Source of the DNA: Solirubrobacter pauli
Lineage (GTDB): Bacteria > Actinomycetota > Thermoleophilia > Solirubrobacterales > Solirubrobacteraceae
Assembly (NCBI RefSeq): GCF_003633755.1
Contig: NZ_RBIL01000001.1
Span: 62,001-126,000 of the forward strand
Length of the DNA stretch: 64,000 nucleotides
Direction of reading: 5' to 3'
Shown here: in pieces, positions 26,112 through 50,783 of the stretch
Numbering within the stretch: the stretch's first letter is position 1
How the letters are laid out: every line of letters begins with the position of its first letter
Translations under genes and position numbers: made by a program
The notes under the pieces: model-generated
The model's input: the letters and a program-made list of their open reading frames with translations, nothing else
What the model was told of the DNA's origin: nothing
Database searches by the model: none

Positions 26112-26118
26112 CCAGGTA

Positions 26119-28821
26119 ATGCGGAGGCTTGCTGGATTGCTGGTGACGCTCGTCGTGCTCGTGGGTGCGGCGAACGCGTCGGCCACCGTGCTGCCTCCCG
26201 GCTTCGTCGAGACGACCGTCCTGCCGGACCTCGGCGTTCCGACCGCGTTCCGGTTCGCGCCGGACGGACGCGTGTTCGTCGCGAGCAAGGACGGCCGGAT
26301 CAACGTCTACGACTCGATCGAGGACACGACCCCGACGCTGTTCGCCGACCTGCGGCGACAGGTCCACGACTACTGGGACCGCGGGCTGCTGGGCATGACG
26401 CTCGACCCGGACTTCGCGGGCGACCGCCCGTACGTGTACGTGCTCTACGCCTACGACAAGGACGGGCACTGGAACGACGACTGCGTGCTCCCCGACGACG
26501 TGGGCTGCGTGGTCAGCGGACGGCTCTCCCGCCTGGGCCCCGACGGCACCGAGACCGTCCTGATCGAGGACTGGTGCCAGCAGTTCCCGTCGCACTCGGT
26601 CGGCGCGGTCGAGTTCGGCCCCGACGGGCAGCTCTACGTGTCGGCCGGCGAGGGCGCCTCGTTCCTATGGACCGACTGGGGCCAGAGCGGGAACCCGTGT
26701 GGCGACCCGCCGTCGACGCCGCAGCTGGCCTGGACGTCCGCGGGCGGCTCGCTCCGGGCGCAGTCGTTCAACCGCCCTGAGGGCGAGGCGGCCGTGCTCG
26801 GCGGTGCGTTGCTGCGCGTGGACCCGGACACCGGCGCCGCGTCCGCCGGCAACCCCGCGATCGCCGACCCGGACCCCAACCGGCAGCGGATCATCGCCTA
26901 CGGCTTCCGCAACCCGTTCCGGTTCACGTTCCGGCCGGGAACGCAGGAGATCTGGGTCGGTGACGTCGGCGCGGACACCGTCGAGGAGATCGACCGCATC
27001 CACGACCGCCGGAACGTCCCGAACTTCGGCTGGCCGTGCTACGAGGGCGCGAATCGCCACTGGGCGTTCGGCGGGATGGGCAACCCGCTGTGCGTCGGGG
27101 TGTACGAGCGCGGCGACATGCAGCCGGCGTACTTCGCGTACCAGCACGGCGAGCCGGTCGTGCCGGGCGAGACGTGCCCGCCCGCGCAGGGCTCGGTCTC
27201 CGGGCTCGTCTTCTACACGGCCACCGCGTTCCCGGCCAGGTACGACGACGCGCTGTTCTTCAGCGACTTCGCGCGCAGCTGCATCTGGGTCGCCCCCAAG
27301 GGGTCCGACGGCCTACCCGACATGGCCCGCGTCGAGCCGTTCGCCTCCGACGCGTCCGTCCCCGTCTCGCTCACGCAGGGCCCGGATGGCGCGCTCTACT
27401 ACGCCGACCTGGCCGAGGGCTCGATCCGGCGGATCGCCTGGCGCGACAACGGCCCCACGGCGCGGATCGTGGCCACGCCGACCGCGGGTCCCACCCCGCT
27501 CACCGTGGCCTTCGACGGCACGACCTCCAGCGACCCCAAGGGCCGCGAGCTCACTTACACGTGGGACCTCGACGGCGACGGCGTCTACGGCGACTCGACC
27601 GAGACGAAGCCCACCCACGAGTACACGACCCCGGGCAAGTTCGTCGTCCGCGTGCGCGTGACCGACATCGCCGGCCAGACCGACACGGCCTCGCAGCTGA
27701 TCACGGCGGGCACCCCGCCGACGGTCGTGGTGACCGCGCCGAAGTGGTTCACCGTGGGCGAGACGATCAGCTTCTCCGCCACCGCGCACGACGGCGACGG
27801 CGAGGTGCTGCCGGCGTCGGCCCTCACCTGGGCACTCGAGATCCGCCACTGCTCGCGCACGGATGCCGGCGTCTGCCACACGCACCCGGTCAAGGGGTGG
27901 ACGAACACCGCGTCCGCGACCACCGACGCACCCGACCACGAGTATCCGTCCCACCTGCTGCTGAAGGTGACCGCGCGCGACGACGATGGGCTGACGACGA
28001 CGCGCGAGACCCGGATCGATCCGCGCACGGTGCAGCTCACCGTCGCCAGCGACCCACCGGGGCTGGAGGTCACGCTCGGCGACGAGCGGCTGCCCGCCCC
28101 GTTCACGCGCACGGTGATGGCCGGCTCGACGAACTCGGTCGCCGCGACGACGTCACAGGTGCTGGACGGCATCCCGTTCACCTTCGCCGGGTGGAGCGGC
28201 GGCGTCGCCGCCACGGGCCTGGTGACGGCGCCGGCGTCCGGCGGCGCCACCTACACGGCGCGGTACACGCGCCCCGCGCCGCCCACGCCGACGCCCACCG
28301 CCACCGCCACCGCGACCGCCACTACACAGCCGCCGGAAGCGCCACCGCAGGTCAACCCGTTCACCCCGCCGGACGTCGGCGGCCTCCCGCCCGCGCCCAA
28401 GCTGCTCGGCGCGTGGGGCTTCGACGCCGGGGCCAACCGCGTCACCGGCCGTCACGGCAAGGCGCTGGCGCTCACCGGCCGCAACGGGCTCACCGTGCGC
28501 GCACCGCGCCTGGGCACGTTCACGGTCGAAGCCTGGGTGTACGCGACCCGCGCCGGCACCGTCGCGCAGCGCGGCAGCGCGTTCCGCCTGCCGACGACGC
28601 TGCGCCGGCGCTGGACGCACCTCGCGCTGACCTATGACGGCACGACGCTCCGCCACTATCGCAACGGTGCGCTCGCCACCGCCCAGCGCCGCACGCTGAA
28701 GCGCACGACGAGCCCGCTCCGATTCGGCGGCTTCCGGGGCCGGCTCGACGACGTGCGCCTCTACGACGGCGCGCTGGCGCCGGCGCAGCTCGCGGACGAC
28801 ATGCGCCGCGCCGTGCGCTGA
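26119..28821 (+). CDS. Secreted PQQ-dependent sugar dehydrogenase with PKD and LamG domains (copy 1)
   Basis: 900 residues. A signal peptide (MRRLAGLLVTLVVLVGAANA) precedes a glucose/sorbosone dehydrogenase beta-propeller (~25-445) with FRFAPDGRVFVASKDGRI, HDYWDRGLLGMTLDPDF, FPSHSVGAVEFGPDGQLYVS, YGFRNPFRFTFRPGTQEIWV and NFGWPCYEGA. A PKD domain (~450-535, TYTWDLDGDGVYGDS) and a second Ig-like region with EIRHCSRTDAGVCHTH follow. Next come a Thr/Pro/Ala linker (TPTPTATATATATT) and a shortened LamG/concanavalin-like domain at the C-terminus (FTVEAWVYATRAGTVAQRGS). The enzyme part oxidises sugars; the other domains probably bind carbohydrate. The paralogue lies directly downstream. Confidence 0.85.
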   Translation: MRRLAGLLVTLVVLVGAANASATVLPPGFVETTVLPDLGVPTAFRFAPDGRVFVASKDGRINVYDSIEDTTPTLFADLRRQVHDYWDRGLLGMTLDPDFAGDRPYVYVLYAYDKDGHWNDDCVLPDDVGCVVSGRLSRLGPDGTETVLIEDWCQQFPSHSVGAVEFGPDGQLYVSAGEGASFLWTDWGQSGNPCGDPPSTPQLAWTSAGGSLRAQSFNRPEGEAAVLGGALLRVDPDTGAASAGNPAIADPDPNRQRIIAYGFRNPFRFTFRPGTQEIWVGDVGADTVEEIDRIHDRRNVPNFGWPCYEGANRHWAFGGMGNPLCVGVYERGDMQPAYFAYQHGEPVVPGETCPPAQGSVSGLVFYTATAFPARYDDALFFSDFARSCIWVAPKGSDGLPDMARVEPFASDASVPVSLTQGPDGALYYADLAEGSIRRIAWRDNGPTARIVATPTAGPTPLTVAFDGTTSSDPKGRELTYTWDLDGDGVYGDSTETKPTHEYTTPGKFVVRVRVTDIAGQTDTASQLITAGTPPTVVVTAPKWFTVGETISFSATAHDGDGEVLPASALTWALEIRHCSRTDAGVCHTHPVKGWTNTASATTDAPDHEYPSHLLLKVTARDDDGLTTTRETRIDPRTVQLTVASDPPGLEVTLGDERLPAPFTRTVMAGSTNSVAATTSQVLDGIPFTFAGWSGGVAATGLVTAPASGGATYTARYTRPAPPTPTPTATATATATTQPPEAPPQVNPFTPPDVGGLPPAPKLLGAWGFDAGANRVTGRHGKALALTGRNGLTVRAPRLGTFTVEAWVYATRAGTVAQRGSAFRLPTTLRRRWTHLALTYDGTTLRHYRNGALATAQRRTLKRTTSPLRFGGFRGRLDDVRLYDGALAPAQLADDMRRAVR

Positions 28822-36682: not shown

Positions 36683-36949
36683 TTACGCGTCGTTCGCCCG
36701 TTGTGCGCGGAAGGCCGCGAGCAGGACGTCGACGCCCTCCGCTGGGACGTCCTCGGCGCGCAGCGCGCCCGTCAGCCGCCGCGTCGCTCGCATCTGCTCG
36801 ACGTAGGCGGCGCAGCCGTCGCACCGGGCCAGGTGGTGGTCGACGACGCGCTGCTCGGAAGCGGGGAGCGCACCTTCGAGGTAGTCGGTGACGCGTTCGA
36901 CGAGCTCCTGGCAGGCGATGTCTCGCGGCGTCCTCCGGAACATGCTCAT
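36683..36949 (-). CDS. Anti-sigma factor with zinc-binding (ZAS/zf-HC2) domain
   Basis: 88 residues. The zinc-binding anti-sigma motif is seen as HHLARCDGCAAY preceded by a Cys in DIACQELVERVTDYLEGALP. There is no transmembrane segment, so this would be a soluble, possibly redox-sensitive anti-sigma factor of the RsrA type. The start overlaps the stop of the ECF sigma gene (ATGA at 36949-36946). Such coupling keeps sigma and anti-sigma in balance, and ZAS domains hold their cognate sigma factor inactive. Confidence 0.85.
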   Translation of the reverse strand: MSMFRRTPRDIACQELVERVTDYLEGALPASEQRVVDHHLARCDGCAAYVEQMRATRRLTGALRAEDVPAEGVDVLLAAFRAQRANDA

Positions 36950-37605
36950 GCGGCCATCACCTCCCCGCCAAGGTAGCGCTCGAGCGCCTGGCGGACCTTC
37001 GAGCGCGCGCGGTGCAGGAGGACGCGCTGGTTGCCCATCGAGACGCCGAGGAGCTCGCACACCTCGTCGGCGTCCCAGCCCTCGACGTCACGCAGCCGGA
37101 TGACGGCCCGCTGGGCGGTCGGGAGCCGCTCGATCGCGTCGGCGATGTGCGCGAGGGTCTCCTGGGAGAGCAGCCGCTCCTCGGGCAACGTCTCCCACGG
37201 GGCGGGTGGCGCGGCCCAGTGGTGGGGATAGGGGTCGCCGGCACCCTGGAAGCGTCCGGGGTCGACCGCGGGCTCGTCGCCCGCGGCGTCGCGGGCCGCC
37301 ACGGCGGAGAACGGCACGCTGCGGGCCTCCGCCACCCCGCGGGTCTTGGCGCGGTTGGTGAGGATGCGGAACAGCCAGGTCTTGAGCGTCGAGCGGCCTT
37401 CGAACCGCTCCAGGCCCCGGATGACGGCCAGCCACGTCTCCTGCACGACCTCCTCGGCGGCCTGGCGGTCGCGCACGTGCAGGCGCGCGACGTGCAGCAT
37501 CGTCGCGCTGTAGCGCTCGACCAGCGCGCGGAAGGCGTGCTCGTCGCCGCGGCGCAGGCGCGCGAGGAGCTCGGCGTCAGGATCGGCTGAAACCGGCGTG
37601 GCCAC
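36946..37605 (-). CDS. ECF RNA polymerase sigma factor
   Basis: 219 residues from the GTG at 37605. Region 2 is ELLARLRRGDEHAFRALVER through AAEEVVQETWLAVIRGLERF and STLKTWLFRILTNRAK. A variable Pro-rich linker follows, then region 4: IERLPTAQRAVIRLRDVEGW and DEVCELLGVSMGNQRVLLHR. It would direct RNA polymerase to a stress regulon and be held by the coupled zinc anti-sigma factor. An upstream ATG at 37686 is in frame but lies beyond a strong terminator hairpin of the preceding gene, so the GTG is preferred. Confidence 0.87.
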   Translation of the reverse strand: MATPVSADPDAELLARLRRGDEHAFRALVERYSATMLHVARLHVRDRQAAEEVVQETWLAVIRGLERFEGRSTLKTWLFRILTNRAKTRGVAEARSVPFSAVAARDAAGDEPAVDPGRFQGAGDPYPHHWAAPPAPWETLPEERLLSQETLAHIADAIERLPTAQRAVIRLRDVEGWDADEVCELLGVSMGNQRVLLHRARSKVRQALERYLGGEVMAA

Positions 37606-37643
37606 CGTACGCGCGACGCTACACCGCGTCACGGGCCGCCGCC

Positions 37644-37676
37644 AGGCGGCCACGGCACAGCGTGCCGTGGCCGCCT
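37644..37676 (-). terminator. Strong hairpin terminator after the propeller protein gene
   Basis: AGGCGGCCACGGCAC (37644-37658) and GTGCCGTGGCCGCCT (37662-37676) form a perfect 15-bp stem with a 3-nt loop, 12 nt past the stop at 37689. It separates the propeller gene from the sigma/anti-sigma pair on the same strand. Confidence 0.75.
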
Positions 37677-37688
37677 CGGTGGTCATGG

Positions 37689-38759
37689 TCAGCGGGCCGC
37701 GAGCCCGGCCAGCTGGCCGGCGCCGAGGTTGGCGACGCCCGGCAGCGCGTCCAGGCCGCCGTCGTCGCGGACGCGGTACGCGGTGATCTCGCCGGCGGCG
37801 GGGTTGATGGCGTACAGGTAGCCGCCCGCGACCGCGAGGTCGTTCGGGCGCGGCGCCGTGGCCGTGAGGCCTCCGGGGGTGAGCGCGGTCAGGCTGCCGT
37901 CGCGGGCGAGCGCGAAGCCGGAGAGGCTGCCGGTCGCGTTGCCGGTGTAGGCGAAGCGCCCGTCGCCGGTGACGACGACCCAGCACGCGGCGCCCTGGCC
38001 GACCGGCAGCGCGGACGTGATCGGGCGCAGCGCTCCGGTGCCCGCGAGCCGGTACGAGGAGACCGTGCTCGTGCCCGCCTCGGACACGACCACGTCACCG
38101 CGCGGCGAGAACGCGAACCCGAACGGCACCTCGCCGCCGGACGCGGTCACGACCGGCGCGCCGATCCGGCCGAACCGCAGCGGCAGCGTCTCGAGGCGGT
38201 TCGAGCCGCGCTCGGTCACGACCAGGTCGCGCCCGTCGGGAGCGACTGAGACCTGCGCGGCGCCGGCCGCGCCGGCGGTCAGCGGCACGGTCGTGCGGGG
38301 GCGCAGGCGGCCGGAGCCGTCGAGGTCGAAGCCGGTGACGTTGGCCACGCCGTCACGGTTGAGGACGTAGGCGTGGCCGTCGGCGATGTCGACGGAGACG
38401 GGCGTGGTGCCGCCCGAGGGCTGGCGGTCGACGAGCGTCAGGTGCCCGCGCCGGCCGATCCGGAACGCCGCGATGTCGTTGGAGCCGGCGTCGACCGCGA
38501 TCAGCAGCCGCCCGTCGTCGGACAGCGCCACGGCGCCCTGGGACTGGAGCGTGACGCCCGTGCCGACGCCACCGGTCCGGTACGTGGCGACCGGCGTCAA
38601 CGCGCCGTCCGGCCCGCGGTCGAACCGGTGCACGGCGTTGCCGGTCGGCGCGTTGGTCTGGGTGTACACGGCACCGCCCACGTCCGCCATGGCGGACCCG
38701 GTGAACAGCATGGCGAAGCCGACCGCGAGCGGAGCCGCGGCGCGCAGCTGGACCTTCAT
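37689..38759 (-). CDS. Secreted lactonase-like beta-propeller protein
   Basis: 356 residues. A signal peptide (MKVQLRAAAPLAVGFAMLFT, cut near SAMA) is followed by a seven-bladed-type propeller. Repeats include VHRFDRGPDGALTPVATY, AALSDDGRLLIAVDAGSN-like AVALSDDGRLLIAVD, VSVAPDGRDLVVTERGSNRL, FAFSPRGDVVVSEAGTSTVS and LAVAGGYLYAINPAAGEITA. This resembles 6-phosphogluconolactonase (YkgB/Pgl) propellers, but it is secreted. Enzyme activity is unproven; many such proteins are binding scaffolds. An AGGAGG lies just upstream of the ATG. Confidence 0.8.
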   Translation of the reverse strand: MKVQLRAAAPLAVGFAMLFTGSAMADVGGAVYTQTNAPTGNAVHRFDRGPDGALTPVATYRTGGVGTGVTLQSQGAVALSDDGRLLIAVDAGSNDIAAFRIGRRGHLTLVDRQPSGGTTPVSVDIADGHAYVLNRDGVANVTGFDLDGSGRLRPRTTVPLTAGAAGAAQVSVAPDGRDLVVTERGSNRLETLPLRFGRIGAPVVTASGGEVPFGFAFSPRGDVVVSEAGTSTVSSYRLAGTGALRPITSALPVGQGAACWVVVTGDGRFAYTGNATGSLSGFALARDGSLTALTPGGLTATAPRPNDLAVAGGYLYAINPAAGEITAYRVRDDGGLDALPGVANLGAGQLAGLAAR

Positions 38760-39017
38760 CTTGAGGAGCCTCCTGGGGATGGAGTTCGTTGTCGGAGGCC
38801 TAGTCGCGGCGTCCGCGAATGCGTTACAACCGATGTGCCGAGCTCACCCCCTCACCCTCGACTCGAGGCTGAGGTTCGGTCTCGCCGTGGACGGTTTCCC
38901 ACACCCCCTGACGTGGCCCCGGTGGAGGTAGCCGCACCCTAATGGGTACGTGCGGCCTATTTCTGGGGTGGCCCTCCATTGTCGGGGTGTGGCGGGTGAG
39001 CGACGTTGGCCGCAGAC
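38760..39017. other. Divergent intergenic region before the 11.8-kb operon
   Basis: No gene is supported. It holds the ribosome-binding site of the propeller gene (AGGAGG on the minus strand) and a dyad GCCGCAC (38931-38937)/GTGCGGC (38950-38956) with an inner ACCC-TAAT-GGGT. The promoter of the four-gene operon is presumably between this dyad and 39018; a TTG at 39006 is an alternative start there. Confidence 0.4.
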
Positions 39018-42000
39018 ATGGCCACGCTCCTTCGCACACTCGCCGCCGGGCTCGTCCTGGCGGGCTTGATCCCGGCCGTCGCGCATGGTGCTGCGCGGCC
39101 TGGTCCATTGCTCTACGCCACGGATGGCGGGCAGCTCGTATCGCTCCCTCCGACGCCGAACGCCGCGCCGTTCCCCGTCCTCGAGACCGGCGTCTTCAAG
39201 TACGCGACCCCGGACGTCTCGCCCGACGGCAAGACCGTCCTCTACGTCACCTCGGACTTCCGCATCGCCCGGGTCCCGATCGGCGGCGGTGAGCCCGAGA
39301 CCCTCTACCGGCCGGTCGGCGACAACCCGTACACCGACTCGCCGGTGTGGCGACCCGACGGCCGGGCGTACGCGTTCACGCGCGCCACGGCCGGCGGGTA
39401 CGAGATCGTCGTCCGCACGGTCAGCAACGAGGAGTCGACGATCCCGTTCCCGGGCGGCGGGTACGCCTCGCGGCTCTCGTGGAACCCGGACGGGCACGAG
39501 CTGGCCGTCGCGTGGACGAGCGGCTCGGACCGGATGTCGCTGGTCGACGTCGACACCGGCGTCTTCAGCCCGCTGCGTCCGCAGGACGCGAGCAACCCGA
39601 ACATCGCCGGCTACGCGCCCGACTTCTCGCCGGACGGCAAGTCGATCGTCTTCCGCCAGCACGTCTACGACCCCGAGACGGCGATGGGCACCAGCCGCCT
39701 CATGGTGATGCCGGTCGAGGCCGGAGGCGTCCCCGAGCGGGTGCTGGCCACGGCCAACGCCGAGACGTTCCGGGGCGCGACCTGGTCGCCGTCCGGCACC
39801 CAGGTCGCCTGGGGCGCCTCCGGCAGCCGGACGGGTGAGGCGAAGCCGGGCACCGACACCGTGGTCGCCAACGTCGACGGCTCCGGCACGACCGTCCTGC
39901 GGCGCACCTACTCGCCCGACTCGCCGGTCTCGCAGGCGATGGACTGGGGCACGAGCGCCGAGCCCTCCACCGAGGGCCGGGTGTTCTTCCAGCGCGGAGG
40001 CCAGGTCTGGCGTGCGAACGCGGACGGCAGCGAGCCGACCGCGCTCGTCGACGGCGCCGAGGTGTCCGTCTCCGCCGACGGCACGCGCATCGCGTACCTC
40101 GTCGACAACGACGTCTACACGGCCACGCCGAGCGGCAAGGGCGTGCGCCGCGTGACCACGACCGGCGCCCGCGAGTGGTACCCGGCGATGAGCCCGGACG
40201 GCACGAAGGTCGCGTTCTCGCGCGTCGACGAGCTCGGCAGCTGGAACCTGTGGACCGCCAACGCGGACGGCTCCGGCGGCGAGCAGATGGTCGCCATGAC
40301 CGGCGGGCGCAACCAGGACGCCGCCTGGTCCCCCGACGGCACGCGGATCGCGTTCACCTCGGTCGGCCGCAGCACCCCGGACCTCCGGATCGTCGACGCC
40401 GACGGCACCAACGAGACCGACCTGCGCACGCCCGGCCGCTACCCCGCGTGGAGCCCCGACGGCCAGCACCTCCTCTACACGGACACGGCGAGCAACTACA
40501 CGGCGCAGATCTTCGTGACCGAGCCGAGGATCGGCGGACCGCGCCGGCAGCTGACCACGGACGCCCGCGGTGCGCGTCGCGCGTCCTACTCGCCCGACGG
40601 CACCGCGTTCGTCTACCAGAGTGACGCCGGCGGCTTGTACAAGGCGTTCGAGGACGGCACCGGCGTGACCCGCGTCACGGCCGAGAACGACCAGGAGCCC
40701 GCGTGGGGTCCGCTGCCGCAGCCGCCGAAGGCCACCGTGGCCGACCTGACGATCGCCGAGGGCGCCTCGGCCACCGCGACGCTGACGCTCAACAAGGTCT
40801 CCGAGGAGGACGCGGTCGTGCGCGTGGTCTCTCACCACGGCACCGCGACGGCCGCCGACTACACCGCGGTGGACCGCGAGGTCACGGTCCCGGCCGGCCA
40901 GCTGACCGCGACGTTCGCCGTCGCCACCACGCAGGACAGCACCGATGAGCCCGACGAGACGTTCACGCTCGCGCTGACGACGGTGAGCAATGCGACCGCC
41001 GGCCCGGCCGCGACCGTGACGATCACCGACGACGACGCCCCGCCGGCCCTGTCGGTGACCGACGTCGACATGGACGAGGGCGACCTCGGATTCACCGACG
41101 CGGTCTTCACCGTGCGCCTGAGCGCCGAGTCGGGCTGGACCGTGAACGTCCGCGCCAGGACCGTCGACGGCACGGCCGTCGCCCCGGCCGACTTCACGGC
41201 GGTCGAGCAGCGCCTCGCGTTCGCCCCGGGCGAGACGGTGAAGGAGGTGCGCGTCCCGGTGTTCGGCGACACCCAGCGGGAAGCCGACGAGCGGTTCGAG
41301 CTCGCGCTCGACCAGCTCGAGCACGTCACCGGCCCGGCGCGCGCCGCCCACGCGACGCTGCGCAACGACGACACCGACGGCGAGCTGCCGGACACCCGCG
41401 TCGAGACCGGCCCGACCGGCCTCGTCAACGTGTCCGCGCCGACGTTCACCTTCATCGGCTCCGTGCCCGGCGGCCGCTTCGAGTGCCGCCTCGACGGTGG
41501 CACCTGGTACGCGTGCACCACCCCGCACCGCACCCGCACGGTGATCGACGGCGAGCACCGCTTCCAGGTGCGCGCGCTCGACGGCGCCCTGGTCGACCCG
41601 GACCCCGCCGAGCGGACGTTCACGGTCGACACGGCCGCTCCGTCGACGACGATCGTGTCCGGCCCGAAGGCGCTCACGAGCGATCGCTCCCCGGTCTTCG
41701 TGCTCGCGTCCGACGACGCCGAGGCGACCTTCGAGTGCCGCCTCGACTCAGGCGACTGGGCACCGTGCGCGTCACCGGCGAAATACGCCGACCTCGCCGA
41801 CGGCACGTACCGGTTCGCCGTCCGCGCCCGTGACCGGGCCGGCAACGTCGACGACACGCCCGCCACGCGGACGTTCACGATCGACACGGTCGCGCCCGAC
41901 ACGGTGTTCACCGCGACGCTGGCGTCCGCGCCCGCGCCGCCGGTCGGCATGGGCACGTCCACGTTCGCGGTCAGCCCGAGCGGCGTCGCCTCGCTGGGCG

Positions 42001-42512
42001 TCACCTGCCCGGCCGGCGCGCCCAGCGCGTGCGAGGGCCAGCTGGCGATCGACCGCGAGAGCGGGCGTGCGAGTGCGGCCGCGACGATCCCGATCGCGTC
42101 GACGCGTTACTCGGTCGCGCCCGGCCAGACCAAGCTGGTCGCCGTCACGCTGCCGGACGCCGCGCGCTGGGTGATCGAGCGCGAGGGCAAGATGGCGGCG
42201 ATCGTCCGGCTGGAGCCGCGCCGCGGCGCCACGACACGCCGCCCGATCACCTTCAGGGCCTCGCGCAACCAGCCGCGCTTCCTCGACGCCGGGCTGAGCG
42301 TCCAGGTCAGGCGAGGTGTGGCGAAGCTGCGCGTGCGCTGCGCGAAGCGGTGCAAGGGCACGCTCACCGTCGCCGTCGGTGGCAAGCGGGTCGGCAAGGC
42401 CGCCATCCGCAACGGCGCCGTGAAGGTCCGCGTCGCCAAGCGCGGCACCGCGGTCGTCAAGTTCAAGACCAAGCGGGTCACCGTGACCCTGACCTCCGGA
42501 GGGAACCGATGA
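39018..42512 (+). CDS. Secreted PD40 propeller with Calx-beta and Ig-like domains (operon gene 1)
   Basis: 1164 residues. A signal peptide (MATLLRTLAAGLVLAGLIPA, cut near AHGA) leads into repeated PD40 blades (~25-565) with DVSPDGKTVLYVTSD, SWNPDGHELAVAW, DFSPDGKSIVFRQ, AMSPDGTKVAFSRVD and AWSPDGTRIAFTSV. Two Calx-beta domains follow (~567-785; each ends ITDDD or RNDDTD). Then come two Ig-like modules with the FECRLDGGTW... C pattern (~790-960) and a basic beta-rich C-terminus rich in KLRVRCAKRCKGTLTVAV-type segments. It is probably an extracellular, calcium-influenced binding scaffold. The stop overlaps the next start (ATGA), and the same Ig-like module recurs in genes 2 and 3. Confidence 0.8.
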   Translation: MATLLRTLAAGLVLAGLIPAVAHGAARPGPLLYATDGGQLVSLPPTPNAAPFPVLETGVFKYATPDVSPDGKTVLYVTSDFRIARVPIGGGEPETLYRPVGDNPYTDSPVWRPDGRAYAFTRATAGGYEIVVRTVSNEESTIPFPGGGYASRLSWNPDGHELAVAWTSGSDRMSLVDVDTGVFSPLRPQDASNPNIAGYAPDFSPDGKSIVFRQHVYDPETAMGTSRLMVMPVEAGGVPERVLATANAETFRGATWSPSGTQVAWGASGSRTGEAKPGTDTVVANVDGSGTTVLRRTYSPDSPVSQAMDWGTSAEPSTEGRVFFQRGGQVWRANADGSEPTALVDGAEVSVSADGTRIAYLVDNDVYTATPSGKGVRRVTTTGAREWYPAMSPDGTKVAFSRVDELGSWNLWTANADGSGGEQMVAMTGGRNQDAAWSPDGTRIAFTSVGRSTPDLRIVDADGTNETDLRTPGRYPAWSPDGQHLLYTDTASNYTAQIFVTEPRIGGPRRQLTTDARGARRASYSPDGTAFVYQSDAGGLYKAFEDGTGVTRVTAENDQEPAWGPLPQPPKATVADLTIAEGASATATLTLNKVSEEDAVVRVVSHHGTATAADYTAVDREVTVPAGQLTATFAVATTQDSTDEPDETFTLALTTVSNATAGPAATVTITDDDAPPALSVTDVDMDEGDLGFTDAVFTVRLSAESGWTVNVRARTVDGTAVAPADFTAVEQRLAFAPGETVKEVRVPVFGDTQREADERFELALDQLEHVTGPARAAHATLRNDDTDGELPDTRVETGPTGLVNVSAPTFTFIGSVPGGRFECRLDGGTWYACTTPHRTRTVIDGEHRFQVRALDGALVDPDPAERTFTVDTAAPSTTIVSGPKALTSDRSPVFVLASDDAEATFECRLDSGDWAPCASPAKYADLADGTYRFAVRARDRAGNVDDTPATRTFTIDTVAPDTVFTATLASAPAPPVGMGTSTFAVSPSGVASLGVTCPAGAPSACEGQLAIDRESGRASAAATIPIASTRYSVAPGQTKLVAVTLPDAARWVIEREGKMAAIVRLEPRRGATTRRPITFRASRNQPRFLDAGLSVQVRRGVAKLRVRCAKRCKGTLTVAVGGKRVGKAAIRNGAVKVRVAKRGTAVVKFKTKRVTVTLTSGGNR

Positions 42513-45376
42513 AGCGCGTGGTCGTGGCCACCCTGGCCACCCTGGCGCTCGCTGCGCCCGCGCACGGCGCGAGCCTGCCGCTCGACGGACCGAGCGGCTC
42601 CACCAACGACGCGACCCCCACGTTCACGTGGGAAGGCGCCGGTGCGACCTGCGCGGTCGACGGCGCCGACGCGACGCCCTGCATCTCGCCCGTGACCCTC
42701 GAGCGGCTGGCCGACGGCCCGCACAGCTTCGAGGTCGTGGTCGGCGAGGAGCGCGCCGCGCGCACGTTCCGCGTGGACACGGTCGCGCCCTCGCTCGCGG
42801 TCGACGGCGTCAACTTCACCGCGGAAGACGGCGCCGTCACCACCTGCGCCGTCGGCGACACGCCGGCCGCCCCGTGCGAGTCGCCCTGGAGCCCGAGCCT
42901 GCCGAACGGCTCGCACGCGCTCCACGTGACCGCGACCGACGCCGCCGGCAACACGACCACGCGGACGCGCATGGTGCAGGTCAGCGTCGCCGACCCGGAG
43001 ACCACCATCACGGCCGGCCCGACGGGCACGACCGAGGACGCGCAGCCGCTGTTCGCGTTCGCCGGCGGCGCGTCCTACGCGTGCACGCTCGACGGCGTCG
43101 CCGTCGACTGCGGGTCCAGCTACCGGACGCCCGCCCTCGCCGCCGGCGAGCACACGCTCACCGTCGCCGCACGTGACACCGCCGGCAACGTCGACCCGAC
43201 GCCCGCGCAGCGCACGTTCACGGTCGTCGCCTGCCAGACCGGCGTGACGCTCGGCGCGGTCGAGATCGCCGCCAAGTGCCTGCACGACGACGGCACGGGC
43301 GCGCTCGTCACCTCGGGTGCGATCAAGCTCAACGGCATCACGCTCAACCCGCAGCGTGAGGTGCGGATCACGCCCGAGACGCGCCGCATCCGCATCGCGG
43401 GCGTGCAGCTCAAGCTCGGCACGATCGTGCTCTTCCAGGGCAACCTGGACTTCACCGTCCCGGCCGACGCGACGTTCCGCCTCGCGACGATCGACCTCAC
43501 CAACCACACGCGCACGGACGAGAAGGGCGACTCCGAGGCAGCGCTCGACCTCCCGGGCTCCGACGACTCCAACGTCGCCGGCTTCCCGCTCAAGGGCCTC
43601 GCCACGCTCGACCTCGACAACGGCCGCACGGTCCTGGACGCGAACATCGAGCTCCCGGAGGTGTTCACCGACGCCGAGGGCAACGGCCTGACCGGCCACC
43701 TGAAGCTCAGCGCCGACAACGAGACCGGGGTGCACCTGGACGAGGCGAAGGTCACCGCCCCGCTGGCCTTCATCGGCAAGCTGGAGCTGCACGACCTTTT
43801 CGTGTCGTTCACCGACAAGGGCACCGGCCCGGTGTCGAGCACGTGCAACACGGAGACACCGGGCCTGCGCTGGGAGGGCGGCGCGTCGGCGATCGTCGTC
43901 CCGGTGCCGGGCAACCTGCGCCTGGAGGACGTGGGCGTCGGGTTCGCCGACGGCGCGCTCTCGCACGCCGAGGCGACCTGGAAGCCGAGCGGCGACGGCG
44001 CCTCGCTGGGCGGCGGCGTCAAGGTCCAGAAGCTGTCCGTGTCGCTGTGCACGGGCCCGCCGCTCGTGCTCGCCGGCCGCGCCGCGCTGACGGCGCTCCC
44101 CGGCGCCGACGGCAAGCCGCGCCTGACGATCCCCGAGGCCGGCCTGAAGTTCACCGCGGGCGATCCGTGGACGATCCGCGCCGAAGCGCCGCTCGCGACG
44201 CTCAACCTCGGCACCCCGATGGAGTTCCGCGACCTGTACGTCGCGGTCAACTCCGCCGGCGGCGTCGACTTCGGCGGCGGCGTGAACTTCGCCATCGACC
44301 TCAAGGGCAACGTCGGCGTCGGCGACCTCGACGCCGCCGTGAAGGTCGACGCGTCCCTGAAGGGCTTCTTCGAAGGCTCGAAGTTCAACGCCGACCTCAA
44401 GGCCACGGGCTGCTTCGGCGGCACGCTGACGATCGGCGCGCCGATCCCGTTCTCCGACATCTGCCCGCAGGTCGACGGCGTGATCTCGTCCACCGGCCTC
44501 GCGGTCTGCGGCTCGCTGGCCGTCGGCGGGAAGAACCTCGGGCGCATCGGCGCCGGCCTCAAGTGGGGCGGCCCGCTGGAGTTCATGGGCAGCACCTGCG
44601 ACGTCGGGCGCTGGCGCGTCGAGAAGACCGCGGGCGCGGCCGCCATCGGCGACCGCAGCGTGCACATCCCCGCCGAGCGCGGCGTGCTCGTCGCCGTGCG
44701 CGGGACGCACACGGCGCCGGACGTCAAGCTCGGCGACCTCATCACCACGTCCGGCGACGTGACGCGGGCCGCCGACGCGCTCGCGTTCACCAACCGCGCG
44801 ACGAAGACGACCTACATCGCGCTCAGCAAGCCGAAGGGCGGGCGCTACACGGTCACCGGCGACGGCATCGCCGACGTCAGGGTCGCGCCGCTGCTCGCCC
44901 CGGCCAAGGTGCGCGGCTCGCTCGCGCATGGTGTGCTCCGCTACCGCGCCGACCAGCCCGTGAAGCTGATCGAGCGCGGCCGCGGCGTCAACCGCGTGCT
45001 CGGCACGGTGTCCGGGAAGGGCCTGATGCGCTTCACCCCGGCCTCGGGCCGGGGCGGCGTCCGCCGGATCGAGGCGGTCGTCGAGCGCAACGGCGAGCGC
45101 CGCACGCTCGCCACCTTCAAGGCCAAGGGCCGCGCCAAGCCGGCCAAGCCGCGCGCGGTGCGCGTGGCGAAGAACCTCATCCGCTGGAGCGGCTCGTCCA
45201 AGCGCTACGGCATCCGCGTCTCGGTCTCGGACGGCCGTGACCTCTTCTTCCTCACCCGCGGGCGCACGTTGCGCGTCCCCGGGATCGACCGCCGCTCGGT
45301 GAGCGTACGCGTCGTCGGCCTGCGCGCCGACAACACGCACGGCCCGGCCGGCACGGCACGGAGCCCGAAGCGATGA
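42509..45376 (+). CDS. Large secreted protein with Ig-like modules, uncharacterised core (operon gene 2)
   Basis: 955 residues. Signal peptide MKRVVVATLATLALAAPAHG, then about three Ig-like modules (~20-235) with the C..C pattern and AGNVDPTPAQRTFTV endings. A ~700-residue beta-rich core starts at VTLGAVEIAAKCLHDDG, contains several spaced Cys pairs and repeated GLATLDLDNGRTVLDANIEL-like strands, and ends in a basic module (VKLIERGRGVNRVLGTVSGK). The core and end align with the proteins at 45373 and 13256. No known family recognised; the strand-rich, low-helix sequence suggests a beta-solenoid or stacked beta sandwiches. ATGA overlaps at both ends. Confidence 0.72.
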   Translation: MKRVVVATLATLALAAPAHGASLPLDGPSGSTNDATPTFTWEGAGATCAVDGADATPCISPVTLERLADGPHSFEVVVGEERAARTFRVDTVAPSLAVDGVNFTAEDGAVTTCAVGDTPAAPCESPWSPSLPNGSHALHVTATDAAGNTTTRTRMVQVSVADPETTITAGPTGTTEDAQPLFAFAGGASYACTLDGVAVDCGSSYRTPALAAGEHTLTVAARDTAGNVDPTPAQRTFTVVACQTGVTLGAVEIAAKCLHDDGTGALVTSGAIKLNGITLNPQREVRITPETRRIRIAGVQLKLGTIVLFQGNLDFTVPADATFRLATIDLTNHTRTDEKGDSEAALDLPGSDDSNVAGFPLKGLATLDLDNGRTVLDANIELPEVFTDAEGNGLTGHLKLSADNETGVHLDEAKVTAPLAFIGKLELHDLFVSFTDKGTGPVSSTCNTETPGLRWEGGASAIVVPVPGNLRLEDVGVGFADGALSHAEATWKPSGDGASLGGGVKVQKLSVSLCTGPPLVLAGRAALTALPGADGKPRLTIPEAGLKFTAGDPWTIRAEAPLATLNLGTPMEFRDLYVAVNSAGGVDFGGGVNFAIDLKGNVGVGDLDAAVKVDASLKGFFEGSKFNADLKATGCFGGTLTIGAPIPFSDICPQVDGVISSTGLAVCGSLAVGGKNLGRIGAGLKWGGPLEFMGSTCDVGRWRVEKTAGAAAIGDRSVHIPAERGVLVAVRGTHTAPDVKLGDLITTSGDVTRAADALAFTNRATKTTYIALSKPKGGRYTVTGDGIADVRVAPLLAPAKVRGSLAHGVLRYRADQPVKLIERGRGVNRVLGTVSGKGLMRFTPASGRGGVRRIEAVVERNGERRTLATFKAKGRAKPAKPRAVRVAKNLIRWSGSSKRYGIRVSVSDGRDLFFLTRGRTLRVPGIDRRSVSVRVVGLRADNTHGPAGTARSPKR

Positions 45377-48285
45377 AGCGCCTCATCCTCCCGATCACCC
45401 TGCTCGCACTGCTCGTGCTGCTCGCGGGGACCGCGTTGGCCGCCGACACGACCGTGTCCGGCGACGGCCCGACGTTCACGTTCGCCTCCACCGAGCCGGG
45501 CGCGACGTTCGAGTGCGCGGTCGACGGCGGCGCCTGGGCGGCGTGCGCCTCACCCCACACGGTGCGCGTGGCCGACGGCCCGCACACCTTCAGCGTGCGC
45601 GCGATCGACGCCGCCGGCAACGCCGACACGACGCCGGCGACCAAGGCGTTCGACGTCGACACCTCCGGCATCGAGACGCTCATCAGCGCCGGCCCCGAAG
45701 GCCTGACGAACGACCCGACGCCGACTTACAGCTTCGGCTCCGAGAGCAAGGGCGCGACCTTCGAGTGCCGCGTGCGCTCCGAATGGGCGCCGTGCGTCTC
45801 GCCGTTCACGCTGCCGAAGCTCAGCAGCGGCAGCTACGTGTTCGAGGTCCGTGGTGTCGTCGGCGCGCGCAAGGACGGCTCCCCCGCCCGCCGCGCGTTC
45901 ACGGTCGACGCGGACGCGCCGGAGACGACCCTGACCGGCGGTCCGGCCGAGGGCGAGACCACGAACCTGCGCTCGCCCGTCTTCACGTACGCGAGCGAGC
46001 CGGGCGCGGCCTTCGAGTGCCGCGTCGATCCGGTCACCAAGGCCGGCGTCGAGCTCGTGGCCTGGGGCACGTGCGGCCCGATCCCGGCGCTCAAGGGCGG
46101 CCCGCACACGTTCGAGGTGCGCGCGGTGGACGCGGCCGGCAACGCGGACCCGACACCCGCCAAGCGCACGTTCGCCGTGCGCGCGTGCGAGCAGGTGGTG
46201 CGGCTCGGGCTCGTCGAGGCCCGTGGCGCGTGCCTGGAGGGCGACGGCGAGACCTACACCTCCACCCAGCCGGTCACCGTCAACGGGCTGCCGCTCGTCG
46301 GGCCGAAGATCGAGGTCTCGGCGACCAAGGTCGCGGTCAAGGGCGTCAAGCTCGAGATCGCCGGGATCGAGCTCTACAAGGGCGACCTGAGCCTGACGAT
46401 CCCGAAGGGCGACACCGAGGTGGAGGTCGCCTCGTTCCCGGTCGCCGGCAAGAAGCTGTTCGGGATGCAGGTCGGCGGCAAGGCCAGCCTGCGCTTCGGC
46501 CGCGGCTCCGCGGTGCTCGCGCTCAACGTCGCGCTGCCGGACATCTTCAAGACCGGCACGGCCGCCAACGCGACCGCGGTCACCGGTGACGTCGCGATCC
46601 GCATGGACGCGGCGAACGGGGTCCAGCTCGACGGGCTGAAGGTCGACGTCGGCAACGCGTACATCGGCCCGCTCGTGGTCGAGAAGCTGTGCCTGTCGTA
46701 CCTGAAGGCCGGCGCCACGTTCGTCGCCGGCTGCCAGGCGCCGACCGTCGGCGGCAAGGCGGGGCAGCCGTTCATCCAGTGCGCGGTCGACACGCAGGTG
46801 GACCGCTGGGACGGCTCGCTGGCGATCGTCCTGCCGACCGCCTCCAAGACCCGCATCGGCATGTGGGGCGGGCTCTCCGGCGGCCAGTTCGGCCACGCCG
46901 GCGCGTTCGTCGACCGGCTGGGCACCGCGGTGCCGCTCGCGCCGGGCGTCTTCCTCGACCGCGTCGCGCTGGGCGTGTGCGTGAACCCGCCGCCGCTGAA
47001 GGTCAAGGGCGAGGTCGGCATCGGCTTCGGCCCCGACTACAACGGCGCCAAGGCGATCGGCCTCAACGGCTGGTTCCAGTACACGGGCGGCACGCCGTGG
47101 CTGATCGAGGCGGGCGGCTCGCTGAGCGTGTTCGGCACGCAGATGGCCGACGCCAGCTTCTCCTACGAGTCCTCCGGGATGGTCAGGTTCGGCTTCCACG
47201 CCGGGTTCAACTTCGGCAAGGCGGCGACGTTCGACGGCCGTGTCGACGGGTGGGTCCAGACGGGCACGCCGAACTTCAACGTCGAGGGCGGCGTGGCCGT
47301 CTGCAACAAGACGCTGGGCTGCCTCAACGCCAACGCGGTCGTCTCGAACATCGGCGTCGCCGGTTGCGCGGGCATCGACACGTGGCTGGGCAAGATCAAC
47401 GTCGGCGCGGGCTACACGTTCCGCACCAAGGAGGTCGACGTGATGCTCGCGGGCTGCGACATCGGCCCGTACCGCGCCAAGGCCGCGCAGGTCGGCGGCA
47501 CCCGGTTCCACGTCGGGCGCAAGGCGGCCGCCGTGGTCGTGCGGGTGCGGGGCCGCGGCGGCGTCCCGAAGGTCGCGCTCGTCGGACCGGACGGGCGCCG
47601 CGTGTCCACCGACGTGCCCGACGGCCAGGGCTTCAAGAACCGCGACTACATGATCATGAGCGACGAGGACCACGGTGCCGTGTCCGTCCTGGTCGCGAGC
47701 CCCGCCGCCGGCGACTGGCACGTCGAGACGCTGCCCGGCTCCGTCGAGGTCGCCGGCCTGGACGTCGCCGACCCGCGCCCGGAGACCGAGATCGAGGCGA
47801 AGGTCGTCGGCCGCCGCGAGCTGCGGTACGAGTACACGCCGCAACCGGGTGAGACCGTCACGTTCGTCGAGCGCGGCCTGCACACCGCGCAGGCCCTCGG
47901 CACGGCGCGGGCGGGCAAGCACACGCTCCGCTTCACGCCCGGCGCCGGCGGCGCCGGCGTGCGCAACGTCGTCGCCCAGATCACGCAGGACGGCAAGCCG
48001 CGCGAGAACGTCAAGGTGGCGTCGTTCGTCGCTTCGGCGGACCGGCTGCCCGCCCGCCCGAAGGTCACGATCAAGCGCAAGGGCCAGTTCGTCCGCATCG
48101 CCTGGAAGAGCCGCGCGGACCGCGTGGACATCAGCTACCGCACGGCCGCGGGCGCCTCGAAGCTCGTCGCCGGCCGCAAGCCGCGCGGGGCGATCCGCGT
48201 CCGCGCCACCCGTATGACCGTCACCGTCCGCGGCCTGCGTGCCGACGGTCGCAGCGGCAAGCCCACGACCCGGAAGGTCAAGTGA
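45373..48285 (+). CDS. Large secreted protein, paralogue of operon gene 2 (operon gene 3)
   Basis: 970 residues. Signal peptide MKRLILPITLLALLVLLAGT. Three Ig-like modules (~25-275) include ATFECAVDGGAWAACASP and ATFECRVRSEWAPCVSP. The uncharacterised core then begins VRLGLVEARGACLEGDG, parallel to gene 2. It includes a hydrophobic Gly-rich stretch (FGFHAGFNFGKAATFDGRVD), the landmark GCDIGPYRAKAAQVGG and a C-terminal beta module (VTFVERGLHTAQALGTARAG) ending in a fibronectin-like basic region. It starts at an ATGA overlap, and its stop overlaps the lipase GTG. Same family as 13256. Function unknown; likely cell-surface or extracellular. Confidence 0.72.
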   Translation: MKRLILPITLLALLVLLAGTALAADTTVSGDGPTFTFASTEPGATFECAVDGGAWAACASPHTVRVADGPHTFSVRAIDAAGNADTTPATKAFDVDTSGIETLISAGPEGLTNDPTPTYSFGSESKGATFECRVRSEWAPCVSPFTLPKLSSGSYVFEVRGVVGARKDGSPARRAFTVDADAPETTLTGGPAEGETTNLRSPVFTYASEPGAAFECRVDPVTKAGVELVAWGTCGPIPALKGGPHTFEVRAVDAAGNADPTPAKRTFAVRACEQVVRLGLVEARGACLEGDGETYTSTQPVTVNGLPLVGPKIEVSATKVAVKGVKLEIAGIELYKGDLSLTIPKGDTEVEVASFPVAGKKLFGMQVGGKASLRFGRGSAVLALNVALPDIFKTGTAANATAVTGDVAIRMDAANGVQLDGLKVDVGNAYIGPLVVEKLCLSYLKAGATFVAGCQAPTVGGKAGQPFIQCAVDTQVDRWDGSLAIVLPTASKTRIGMWGGLSGGQFGHAGAFVDRLGTAVPLAPGVFLDRVALGVCVNPPPLKVKGEVGIGFGPDYNGAKAIGLNGWFQYTGGTPWLIEAGGSLSVFGTQMADASFSYESSGMVRFGFHAGFNFGKAATFDGRVDGWVQTGTPNFNVEGGVAVCNKTLGCLNANAVVSNIGVAGCAGIDTWLGKINVGAGYTFRTKEVDVMLAGCDIGPYRAKAAQVGGTRFHVGRKAAAVVVRVRGRGGVPKVALVGPDGRRVSTDVPDGQGFKNRDYMIMSDEDHGAVSVLVASPAAGDWHVETLPGSVEVAGLDVADPRPETEIEAKVVGRRELRYEYTPQPGETVTFVERGLHTAQALGTARAGKHTLRFTPGAGGAGVRNVVAQITQDGKPRENVKVASFVASADRLPARPKVTIKRKGQFVRIAWKSRADRVDISYRTAAGASKLVAGRKPRGAIRVRATRMTVTVRGLRADGRSGKPTTRKVK

Positions 48286-50774
48286 AGATGAAGCGCGCAC
48301 TGATGCTCGCGCTGTCCGCCGCGGCGCTGCTCGCGCCCGCGGCGGCGCAGGCCCGCACGGACGACCTCGCCAAGCCGATCGTGTTCCTCACCGGCGGCGA
48401 CGAGCTGTCCTGCTCGACCTTCTCCCCCATGCAGGCGGCGTTCGAGAAGTTCAACACCACGGTCGCGGGCGCCAAGGTGCAGCTCGCCGGGACGATGCGG
48501 ACCGTCGGCGTGAACGGGTCCAGCGGCTGCACCGCGACGCTGCCGTCCTCGGGCGGCGCGTCGATCGAGCAGCTCGGCGACCAGTTCGCCACGTGGGTCG
48601 TCGGCCAGTACGACGACAAGACGATCGATGTGGTCGCCTTCGGGCGCGGCGGGCTGATCCTGCGCAGCGCGCTCGCACAGCGGCCCAAGCTCCGCGTCGA
48701 GGACGCGGTGACGATCGGCACGCCACACGCCGGCTCCACCCTGCACCGCAACCCGCAGGGTGACGGGGGCACCGACTGGTCGGTGATCGCCTCCGCCGCG
48801 GACGCGGTCGTGCCGGTGGCCAGCGCCATCGACATGGACGCCGCGCACAAGACGATCTACGCGAAGGTCACGCGCGAGCAGCTGCTCACGGACGCGTCGA
48901 CCAAGCGCAACCTGGCGATCCAGTACTCCCACGACGGGCTCGAGTTCCAGCCGTCCACCGGCGCGCCGCATCCGATCCAGCGCGTCGGCGAGGACCTCGT
49001 GTTCGGCAGCGACGGTGGTGGCGGCGGCTGCGCGTTCGCGGCCACGCAGCCGCACGAGTGCGGTGTCACGCCGATCATCATGCTCCCCGGGTTCGGCGCG
49101 TCCGAGCTGGTCTGCGACGAGGGCGGCAGCACGACCAACCTGTGGCCGGGCGCGATCAGCTGGGGGCCGAAGTTCCGCACGATGGCGCTCAACGCGCAGG
49201 GCACCGGGCCGGAGGTCAGCACCGAGTGCACGACGAGCATCCGGCCGACCGGCAACGCGCTCGAGTGCGTGCTCGCCTGCCGCAAGGACATCCACGCCGA
49301 CTCGGTCGACTGGCTCAAGCGGATCGGCGGCCCGCACACCTACGTCTTCGGCTGGGACTTCCGCAAAGGCCCGGACAAGACGCTCAGGCGGCTCGACGCG
49401 TTCATCGACAAGGTCCGGCGTGACCACGCGGCGACGAAGGTCGCGATCGTCAGCCACTCCTACGGCGGCCTGCTCACGCGCTGGTACGTCGACGACCCGG
49501 ACCGCGCGCAGAAGATCGCCCGCGTCGCCAACTTCGGCTCCCCGTACTGGGGCGCGCCGAAGGCCTGGTTCGCGGTCGCCTACGGCTACGAGACGCCGAC
49601 CTGGGAGATGTCCGACAACATCGTCGACAACGCCAACTTCCTCCACTGGACCCGCAACCTGACCGGGATGTACTACCTGTTCCCGGGCCAGGCGTGGTTC
49701 GACCACATCCCCGGCAAGGGCAGCGCCTGGCTGGAGGTCAACGAGGCGCCGATGCGCAACACCACGCAGGCGGCGTGGGCGATCGGCCAGGCGGGCGGCA
49801 ACGAGGCGTTGGCGAAGACCGTCGCCGCCGGCCACAAGGACCACATCGACGGCTTCAAGACGTACGGGGGCGCGATCGACTGGCGCATCTTCGTGGGCTC
49901 CGAGAAGCCGACGATGGGTCACGTCCGCGCCTACACCGACGACACCGACCCGCAGTTCTCGTGGATCAACGGCGACGGCACCGTGCCGCTGGTCTCCCAG
50001 CGGCAGTCGTTCCGTGCCGGCGACCGGCAGATGGGCGACCAGGTCAAGACGTACAACTTCTGCGACGTCAGCCACATGGGCGAGATGGAGGACGAGGACA
50101 TCCAGGAGGCGGTCACGCCGTTCATCACGACCGGAGCGAACCCGGTCGTCGACGGCGAGACGCTGCGCGACGACCCCTGCCCGCTGGACACCAGCGAGTA
50201 CGAGTTCGAGGGCGACGAGGACGACAAGTCGATCTCGATCTCCGAGGGCATCGAGGGCGTCAAAGCCAGCCGCGCACCGTCCCAGACGCCGGCGGCCACG
50301 GGTCCGATGTCGCTCGACGACGCCGAGCTCGCCGGGCTCGTCGACGTCGTGCGCGTGCCGGGCGCGCTGCGCTTCGTCACCACCACCCGCAAGCCGCTGA
50401 CGGTGCGCGCCGCCGGCACCGGCACCGTGACCGTCACGCCGATCACCGGCGACGGCAAGGAGGGCAAGCCGCGCGTGTACGACCTCGGCGCGACGCCGAT
50501 CGCGATCGCCGCCGACGGCGCCAAGACCCGCTCCGCGGCTCCCTCGCGGGCGGCGGACACGCGGGCCCCGCGGACGACCGCGATCATCAAGCGCGGCAAG
50601 CTCCGCGTGAAGGCCAAGGACGCCTCCGGCATCAAGGTCACGCTCGTCCAGGTGGGCAAGCGCCGGCCGCAGGTCTACAAGCGGCCGCTGCGCGTGGGCG
50701 CGCAGGCGAAGGTGCGCGTGTGGTCGGTCGACACGGCAGGCAACACCGAGCGCAAGCGGCTCGTCAAGCGCTGA
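48282..50774 (+). CDS. Secreted LCAT-like lipase with two hydrolase modules (operon gene 4)
   Basis: 830 residues (GTG at 48282, or ATG at 48288). A signal peptide ends near AAAQA. A first alpha/beta-hydrolase-like module (~30-200) has VVAFGRGGLILRS, where the nucleophile Ser is replaced (GxSxG becomes GRG), so it looks inactive. The second (~262-610) is an LCAT/PGAP1-type lipase: oxyanion region IIMLPGFGASELVC, nucleophile S393 in VSHSYGGLLTRW, likely Asp565 in INGDGTVPLVS and His598 in VSHMGEM. An acidic linker and an Ig-like C-terminus follow. It probably acts on lipids or acyl esters outside the cell. A stop-codon hairpin ends the operon. Confidence 0.82.
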   Translation: MKMKRALMLALSAAALLAPAAAQARTDDLAKPIVFLTGGDELSCSTFSPMQAAFEKFNTTVAGAKVQLAGTMRTVGVNGSSGCTATLPSSGGASIEQLGDQFATWVVGQYDDKTIDVVAFGRGGLILRSALAQRPKLRVEDAVTIGTPHAGSTLHRNPQGDGGTDWSVIASAADAVVPVASAIDMDAAHKTIYAKVTREQLLTDASTKRNLAIQYSHDGLEFQPSTGAPHPIQRVGEDLVFGSDGGGGGCAFAATQPHECGVTPIIMLPGFGASELVCDEGGSTTNLWPGAISWGPKFRTMALNAQGTGPEVSTECTTSIRPTGNALECVLACRKDIHADSVDWLKRIGGPHTYVFGWDFRKGPDKTLRRLDAFIDKVRRDHAATKVAIVSHSYGGLLTRWYVDDPDRAQKIARVANFGSPYWGAPKAWFAVAYGYETPTWEMSDNIVDNANFLHWTRNLTGMYYLFPGQAWFDHIPGKGSAWLEVNEAPMRNTTQAAWAIGQAGGNEALAKTVAAGHKDHIDGFKTYGGAIDWRIFVGSEKPTMGHVRAYTDDTDPQFSWINGDGTVPLVSQRQSFRAGDRQMGDQVKTYNFCDVSHMGEMEDEDIQEAVTPFITTGANPVVDGETLRDDPCPLDTSEYEFEGDEDDKSISISEGIEGVKASRAPSQTPAATGPMSLDDAELAGLVDVVRVPGALRFVTTTRKPLTVRAAGTGTVTVTPITGDGKEGKPRVYDLGATPIAIAADGAKTRSAAPSRAADTRAPRTTAIIKRGKLRVKAKDASGIKVTLVQVGKRRPQVYKRPLRVGAQAKVRVWSVDTAGNTERKRLVKR

Positions 50775-50783
50775 CGAGCCGCT
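50755..50783 (+). terminator. Hairpin terminator of the four-gene operon
   Basis: AGCGGCTCGTCA (50755-50766) and TGACGAGCCGCT (50772-50783) form a perfect 12-bp stem with a 5-nt loop. The stop codon (50772-50774) lies in the second arm. No comparable hairpin was noticed at the gene junctions within the operon. Confidence 0.65.

What the first reader, a model, noticed from the sequence alone, without database searches (positions are those of the whole stretch)
39018..50783. Four-gene, 11.8-kb secreted-protein operon joined by 4-nt overlaps
Junctions at 42509 (ATGA), 45373 (ATGA) and 48282 (GTGA) all overlap by 4 nt, and a 12-bp-stem hairpin closes the run. All four products have signal peptides. 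Three share the same Ig-like Cys-containing module, two share a ~700-residue unknown core, and the last is an LCAT-type lipase. Such strict coupling of very large exported proteins suggests fixed stoichiometry, perhaps one extracellular complex acting on lipids or surface polymers. I know of no described system with this make-up.
Basis: partly seen in the sequence, partly recalled or inferred. Interest (0 to 1): 0.72.

Follow-up and report, generated by a model that had tools for sequence, protein, structure and literature searches.

The report
Coupled four-gene operon of exported proteins
Soil bacteria of the genus Solirubrobacter keep four very large exported proteins in one tightly coupled gene row whose main building block has no name in the protein-family databases, while the lipase-like part at its end can be swapped for another copy of that block, so the row is a real unit but not simply a lipase machine.

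Summary
Four long, apparently exported proteins lie at 39018-50774, with 4-nt overlaps at all three junctions and a 12-bp hairpin at the last stop codon. The order is conserved in 5 of 6 Solirubrobacter species examined (S. deserti has two versions) and in none of 54 sampled genomes of other genera. Junctions 1 and 3 are 4-nt overlaps in every version; junction 2 drifts from -4 to +5 nt.

The interpretation needs three corrections. (a) The "unknown core" is not peculiar to this operon: it is a class-wide Thermoleophilia module without a Pfam match, modelled as about 25 amphipathic antiparallel strands followed by FN3-like domains. (b) Gene 4 holds two alpha/beta-hydrolase domains: a pseudo-hydrolase (nucleophile Ser replaced by Gly in all six homologues) and an LCAT-family domain with an intact Ser-Asp-His triad. 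(c) In S. phytolaccae and the second S. deserti cluster the LCAT domain is replaced by a third core copy, so lipase activity cannot be the constant function.

Best reading: a genus-specific, translationally coupled exoprotein assembly (propeller/Ig protein, two paralogous beta-sheet scaffolds, and a pseudo-hydrolase carrying an esterase or a third scaffold). One complex and a lipid substrate are inferred, not shown.

The parts
38930..39017 (+). conserved leader upstream of gene 1 (blocks CCGCACCC-AA-GGGT and CTGGGGTGG-CCTCCATTG); probable promoter/5' region
   Evidence: Conserved with S. deserti upstream of its g1 while DNA further upstream diverges; the exact 23-nt pattern occurs once in the genome.
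39018..42512 (+). gene 1: signal peptide, PD40 beta-propeller (about 30-565), two Calx-beta (about 570-790), Ig-like modules (about 790-965), C-terminal region shared with type-B gene 1
   Evidence: Pfam PD40 7.5e-29, Calx-beta 4.9e-24, Big_13 1e-7; 36% identity over 416 aa at the C-terminus with the 2258-aa S. phytolaccae gene 1.
42509..45376 (+). gene 2: signal peptide, Ig-like modules, core (beta-meander plus FN3-like)
   Evidence: Big_13 6.6e-10; homologous to gene 3; ATGA overlap with gene 1.
45373..48285 (+). gene 3: signal peptide, three Ig-like modules (about 28-270), core beta-meander (about 270-695) and FN3-like domains (about 805-970)
   Evidence: Big_13 4e-11; AlphaFold2 model of the core, mean pLDDT 80, pTM 0.52, all beta; FN3 matches; ATGA overlap.
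48282..50774 (+). gene 4: signal peptide, pseudo alpha/beta-hydrolase (about 28-245, Ser replaced by Gly121), LCAT-family domain (about 264-620, S393/D565/H598), C-terminal OmpL47-like domain
   Evidence: PF02450 33.9 bits, cut-off 21; triad invariant in 7 homologues; Gly in place of Ser in all six N-domains against GHSMGG in a stand-alone relative.
50755..50783 (+). 12-bp hairpin spanning the stop codon of gene 4, no T-run
   Evidence: Fold -31.6 kcal/mol, z -3.3; not called by the terminator scan.

Best explanation
A Solirubrobacter-specific operon for four Sec-exported multidomain proteins, made in coordinated amounts by termination-reinitiation at overlapping stop/start codons, that most likely assemble on or near the cell surface. 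Gene 1 supplies a beta-propeller and adhesive Calx-beta/Ig modules; genes 2 and 3 are old paralogues forming paired scaffolds with a long amphipathic beta-sheet; gene 4 docks through a dead hydrolase domain and presents either an LCAT-type esterase/acyltransferase (this genome) or a third scaffold (S. phytolaccae, S. deserti cluster B). Shown: gene structure, conservation, domain content, dead and intact active sites (by sequence), the swap. Inferred: export, coupling, physical assembly, the role of the dead domain as a dock, any substrate, and the direction of the swap.
For: Order kept in 5 of 6 genus species and six distinct clusters; junctions 1 and 3 are -4 nt in all, junction 2 is -4, -1, +4 or +5 nt, inside the distance at which reinitiation works (PMC10666635). 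Flanking genes of the window have no match beside the other clusters, so the four genes are kept together as a unit. g2 and g3 form two separate, strongly supported clades, each with one copy per cluster, so the pair predates the split of the clusters. Intact LCAT triad. Ser-to-Gly loss in all six N-domains. Swap of LCAT for core in two clusters. All genes under net purifying selection, dN/dS 0.27-0.58. Strands of the meander are amphipathic, z 6.4.
Against: No direct evidence of interaction, secretion or substrate. SD-like stretches lie before the starts of genes 2 and 4, so independent initiation is possible. Gene 4 evolves two to three times faster in amino acids than g1-g3, which a tight obligate subunit would not predict. 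The amphipathic-strand signal is also present in the FN3-like part (z 4.1) and does not by itself mean lipid binding. The gene-4 model failed (pLDDT 40).
Confidence: 0.45

Rival explanations
1. An ordinary operon of independent exoproteins: co-expressed surface or secreted proteins (adhesins, binding proteins, an extracellular esterase) that work side by side without forming one complex.
For: Components are common modules (PD40, Calx-beta, Ig, FN3) and cores occur alone in many genomes; -4 overlaps are the commonest spacing in bacteria (PMC10666635); gene 4 diverges faster.
Against: Order and near-zero spacing are kept in all six clusters despite about 45% identity and different flanks; g2 and g3 are both present in every cluster found.
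Confidence: 0.35
2. A lipid- or polyester-degrading machine: the gene 4 LCAT domain hydrolyses an acyl ester, and the amphipathic sheets of genes 2 and 3 bind or present the hydrophobic substrate.
For: Intact LCAT triad; amphipathic meander; a second LCAT lineage is likewise coupled by 4 nt to a giant PD40 protein in three genomes.
Against: Two clusters lack the LCAT domain altogether, and the S. phytolaccae genome (G003) has no other strong match to it.
Confidence: 0.15
3. A variable-effector arrangement in which the last gene carries an interchangeable payload (LCAT or core) behind a shared N-terminal domain.
For: LCAT/core swap behind a shared N-domain; accelerated change in gene 4.
Against: The N-domain is the most divergent part of gene 4 (55% identity), the next gene is on the other strand, and there is no defence-library hit.
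Confidence: 0.05

Closest known systems
LCAT / group XV phospholipase A2 family (PF02450)
   Same: The second domain of gene 4 scores above the family cut-off and has the invariant Ser-Asp-His triad.
   Different: Here it follows a dead hydrolase domain, is the last gene of a coupled exoprotein operon, and is missing from some clusters.
Stand-alone exported alpha/beta-hydrolase at G054:C22 (locus L041)
   Same: 32-38% identity with the six gene-4 N-domains.
   Different: L041 keeps GHSMGG; all six operon N-domains have Gly at the nucleophile position.
TolB-like PD40 propeller proteins
   Same: PD40 repeats at the N-terminus of gene 1.
   Different: Score far below the TolB equivalog cut-off; Calx-beta and Ig tail instead.
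Thermoleophilia core proteins with Kelch, PKD-like or BNR-like N-termini (for example L065, L067, L131)
   Same: Same C-terminal meander plus FN3-like module.
   Different: Single genes, without a second core gene or an LCAT gene directly beside them.

Membership tests
LCAT family (PF02450), gene 4 second domain | Match above the family gathering score | tested here: met
   33.9 bits against 21
LCAT family (PF02450), gene 4 second domain | Ser nucleophile in GxSxG/HSxGG elbow, catalytic Asp and His | tested here: met
   S393, D565, H598 invariant in 7 homologues
LCAT family (PF02450), gene 4 second domain | Acyl-ester hydrolase or acyltransferase activity | not testable with these tools
   Needs purified protein
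Catalytic alpha/beta-hydrolase, gene 4 first domain | Nucleophile in the GxSxG elbow | tested here: not met
   Gly at the Ser position in all six homologues; a stand-alone relative has Ser
A known Pfam family for the g2/g3 core | Pfam match across the core | tested here: not met
   0 families for the query; only two weak single-member hits (E 0.03) among 19 sequences
Outer-membrane-type beta-barrel fold (core meander) | Closed antiparallel barrel | tested here: inconclusive
   VIA-align Z about 10 to VDAC, Tom40, LptD but rmsd 12-15 over residues 114-430 of the model; closure could not be tested without coordinates
Translationally coupled heteromeric complex | Conserved short overlaps or near-zero spacing | tested here: met
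   -4 nt at junctions 1 and 3 in six clusters; -4 to +5 nt at junction 2
Translationally coupled heteromeric complex | Physical interaction of the products | not testable with these tools
   Needs co-purification
TolB (TIGR02800), gene 1 | Equivalog cut-off of 343 bits | tested here: not met
   115.9 bits

The most novel reading that the evidence does not exclude
The core is a new fold family: a long curved amphipathic beta-sheet on exported Actinomycetota proteins that forms hydrophobic grooves or tubes outside the cytoplasmic membrane, and the operon builds a stoichiometric extracellular hydrophobic conduit to which an acyl-ester enzyme or a further groove is attached through a dead hydrolase adaptor.
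Probability: 0.08. Interest if true: 0.85.

Novelty: new variant of a known kind. Interest (0 to 1): 0.45.

Why it matters
It defines a class-wide exported protein family with no Pfam entry, kept as a paralogous pair in one genus, and shows a catalytic domain exchanged for a non-catalytic one behind a pseudo-enzyme at a fixed operon position. That is a natural experiment on what the conserved part of such an exoprotein operon does when the enzyme is absent, and it gives tractable targets in Thermoleophilia, a class with few functionally studied surface proteins (own knowledge).

Tried and rejected
Variable-toxin or defence reading: the next gene is on the other strand, no PADLOC hits, and the shared N-domain is the least conserved part. 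Tol-Pal reading: TolB score far below cut-off. Gene-4 structure: AlphaFold2 with four sequences gave pLDDT 40, so no fold claim is made from it. Core profile against PDB sequences: nothing convincing (best E 0.46). Foldseek against PDB and viral models returned mostly FN3/Ig proteins at low TM-score. No clear known fold was found for the meander; this is not evidence that its fold is new. Intrinsic terminator and sigma-70 promoter: not called. Papers: nothing on this operon found. Double counting of S. deserti was avoided: G001 and G006 are the same strain, CPCC 204708.

Full report
OBSERVATION. The window is G000:C1:62001-126000 of a 7.1-Mb genome. Four plus-strand genes run from 39018 to 50774. 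The stop/start overlaps were read directly: CGATGAAG at 42509, CGATGAAG at 45373 and AAGTGAAGATG at 48282. The third depends on a GTG start; an ATG at 48288 would give a +2 nt spacing. A 12-bp hairpin spans the last stop codon, without a T-run. Codon-position GC supports the plus strand.

IS IT MORE THAN CHANCE? Four-nucleotide overlaps are, with 1-nt overlaps, by far the commonest spacing of serial genes in prokaryotes (PMC10666635). In a crude count over the window and related loci, 27 of 112 same-strand neighbours overlap by 4 nt; without this operon and the LCAT pairs it is about one in ten. So the overlaps alone are ordinary. The conservation is not: six distinct clusters in five species keep the order. 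Junctions 1 and 3 are -4 nt in all six (junction 3 of some copies also allows an ATG start one or a few bases on). Junction 2 is -4 (window, S. deserti A), -1 (Ca. S. pratensis, S. soli), +4 (S. deserti B) or +5 nt (S. phytolaccae). The window's flanking genes (lactonase-type propeller, sigma factor, radical-SAM) have no match beside the other clusters. G004, a sixth species of the genus, lacks the cluster. None of 54 sampled genomes from other genera of the order has it. G001 and G006 are the same strain, CPCC 204708, and count once.

TWO TYPES OF CLUSTER. Type A (window, S. deserti) has a gene 1 of 1164 aa: PD40 propeller, Calx-beta, Ig. Type B (S. deserti, Ca. S. pratensis, S. phytolaccae, S. 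soli) has a giant gene 1; the complete S. phytolaccae copy is 2258 aa with PD40, PKD and Big_13 and the same C-terminal Ig region, 36% identical over 416 aa. Genes 2 and 3 form two separate strongly supported clades, each with one copy from every cluster, so the pair was present before types A and B separated.

GENE 4. Pfam places an LCAT domain in the second half and other hydrolase matches in the first. The LCAT triad S393, D565, H598 is invariant in seven homologues. The first half is itself an alpha/beta-hydrolase: a stand-alone relative in the same order (L041, from G054) reads VGHSMGGL where the window reads VAFGRGGL; S. deserti A has YGQGG, Ca. S. pratensis EGGGG, S. soli YGGGG, S. deserti B AGTGG and S. 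phytolaccae HGTGG. The nucleophile is Gly in all six, so this domain is a pseudo-hydrolase (inference from sequence). In S. deserti B and S. phytolaccae the LCAT half is absent and a third core follows the pseudo-hydrolase (no Pfam match in the S. deserti B protein). The two N-domains that carry cores form one clade, although the g3 tree pairs S. phytolaccae with S. soli, whose gene 4 has LCAT. That discordance suggests exchange of the fourth gene between clusters, or loss of one of two old forms; the direction is not resolved. S. phytolaccae (G003) has no other strong LCAT match.

THE CORE. No Pfam family matches and no convincing sequence relative is in the PDB. It occurs in 44 of 299 sampled genomes of the class, 24 of 114 genera, and rarely outside the class (two other genomes in the phylum sample, partial matches). 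It sits at the C-terminus of proteins whose N-termini carry Ig, Kelch, PKD-like or BNR-like repeats. No tandem core pair was seen outside the genus in these lists. An AlphaFold2 model of g3 46162-48285, with 19 aligned sequences from the window and public contigs, has mean pLDDT 80 and pTM 0.52 and is all beta: about 25 strands of five or more residues up to residue 430 of the model, then FN3-like domains. Strand residues alternate between hydrophobic and polar more than shuffles do (z 6.4; FN3-like part 4.1). VIA-align gives Z about 10 against beta-barrels such as VDAC and LptD at rmsd 12-15, which may mean only a long antiparallel meander. Whether the sheet is open or closed is unknown.

SELECTION. 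Between the window and S. deserti A, amino-acid identity is 81, 86, 88 and 67% for g1-g4, and dN/dS 0.38, 0.32, 0.27 and 0.58 (Nei-Gojobori counts in a GC-rich genome are rough). The pseudo-hydrolase (55% identity), the LCAT domain (71%) and the PD40 propeller (76%) are the fastest parts; Ig and core are the slowest.

MECHANISM. Best supported: coordinated synthesis of four exported proteins by termination-reinitiation, assembly at the surface, with genes 2 and 3 as constant scaffolds and gene 4 as an exchangeable arm. Only the anatomy is shown; export, coupling, assembly and substrate are inferred. The lipase reading applies at most to clusters with LCAT.

A PARALLEL CASE. The genome has a second LCAT gene, also overlapped by 4 nt with an upstream giant protein (1710 aa) that carries PD40, PKD and Big_9 and an HELAH metallopeptidase-like motif; a homologous pair occurs in G004 and G034. 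Two separate LCAT lineages coupled to giant PD40 proteins suggest a functional tie between such propellers and the esterase.

VERDICT. Observation confirmed, interpretation partly supported. The operon is a new variant of a known kind (co-translated modular exoproteins); its core is an unnamed class-wide family.

Noticed in passing
L071:9862-17432 (own genome, G000:C1 about 511.9-519.4 kb), L072:7992-15628, L073:3857-11133: Second LCAT lineage, overlapped by 4 nt with a giant exported protein carrying PD40, PKD and Big_9 in three genomes; the two sequences printed (L071, L072) also have an HELAH metallopeptidase-like motif.
   Followed up: partly
window 26068-28821 and 28876-31584: Tandem 59%-identical exported paralogues with glucose/sorbosone dehydrogenase, PKD and laminin-G domains.
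   Followed up: partly
window 38930-39017: Leader upstream of gene 1 conserved with S. deserti, with a CCGCACCC..GGGT block found once in the genome.
   Followed up: partly
L060:9085-12357, L062:12270-15608: Fourth genes with a pseudo-hydrolase fused to a third core; both carry a DxDxDG-like Cys-flanked insert inside the core (GTDDDRDG / GKDNDDDG).
   Followed up: no
window 36946-38759: ECF-type sigma factor gene beside a lactonase-type propeller gene, divergent from the operon; no match to either beside the other clusters.
   Followed up: no
window 7344-10310 and 62638-63999: Two otherwise different large genes (amidase domain; lamin-tail domain) whose products both end in TFTLSTTNP.
   Followed up: no
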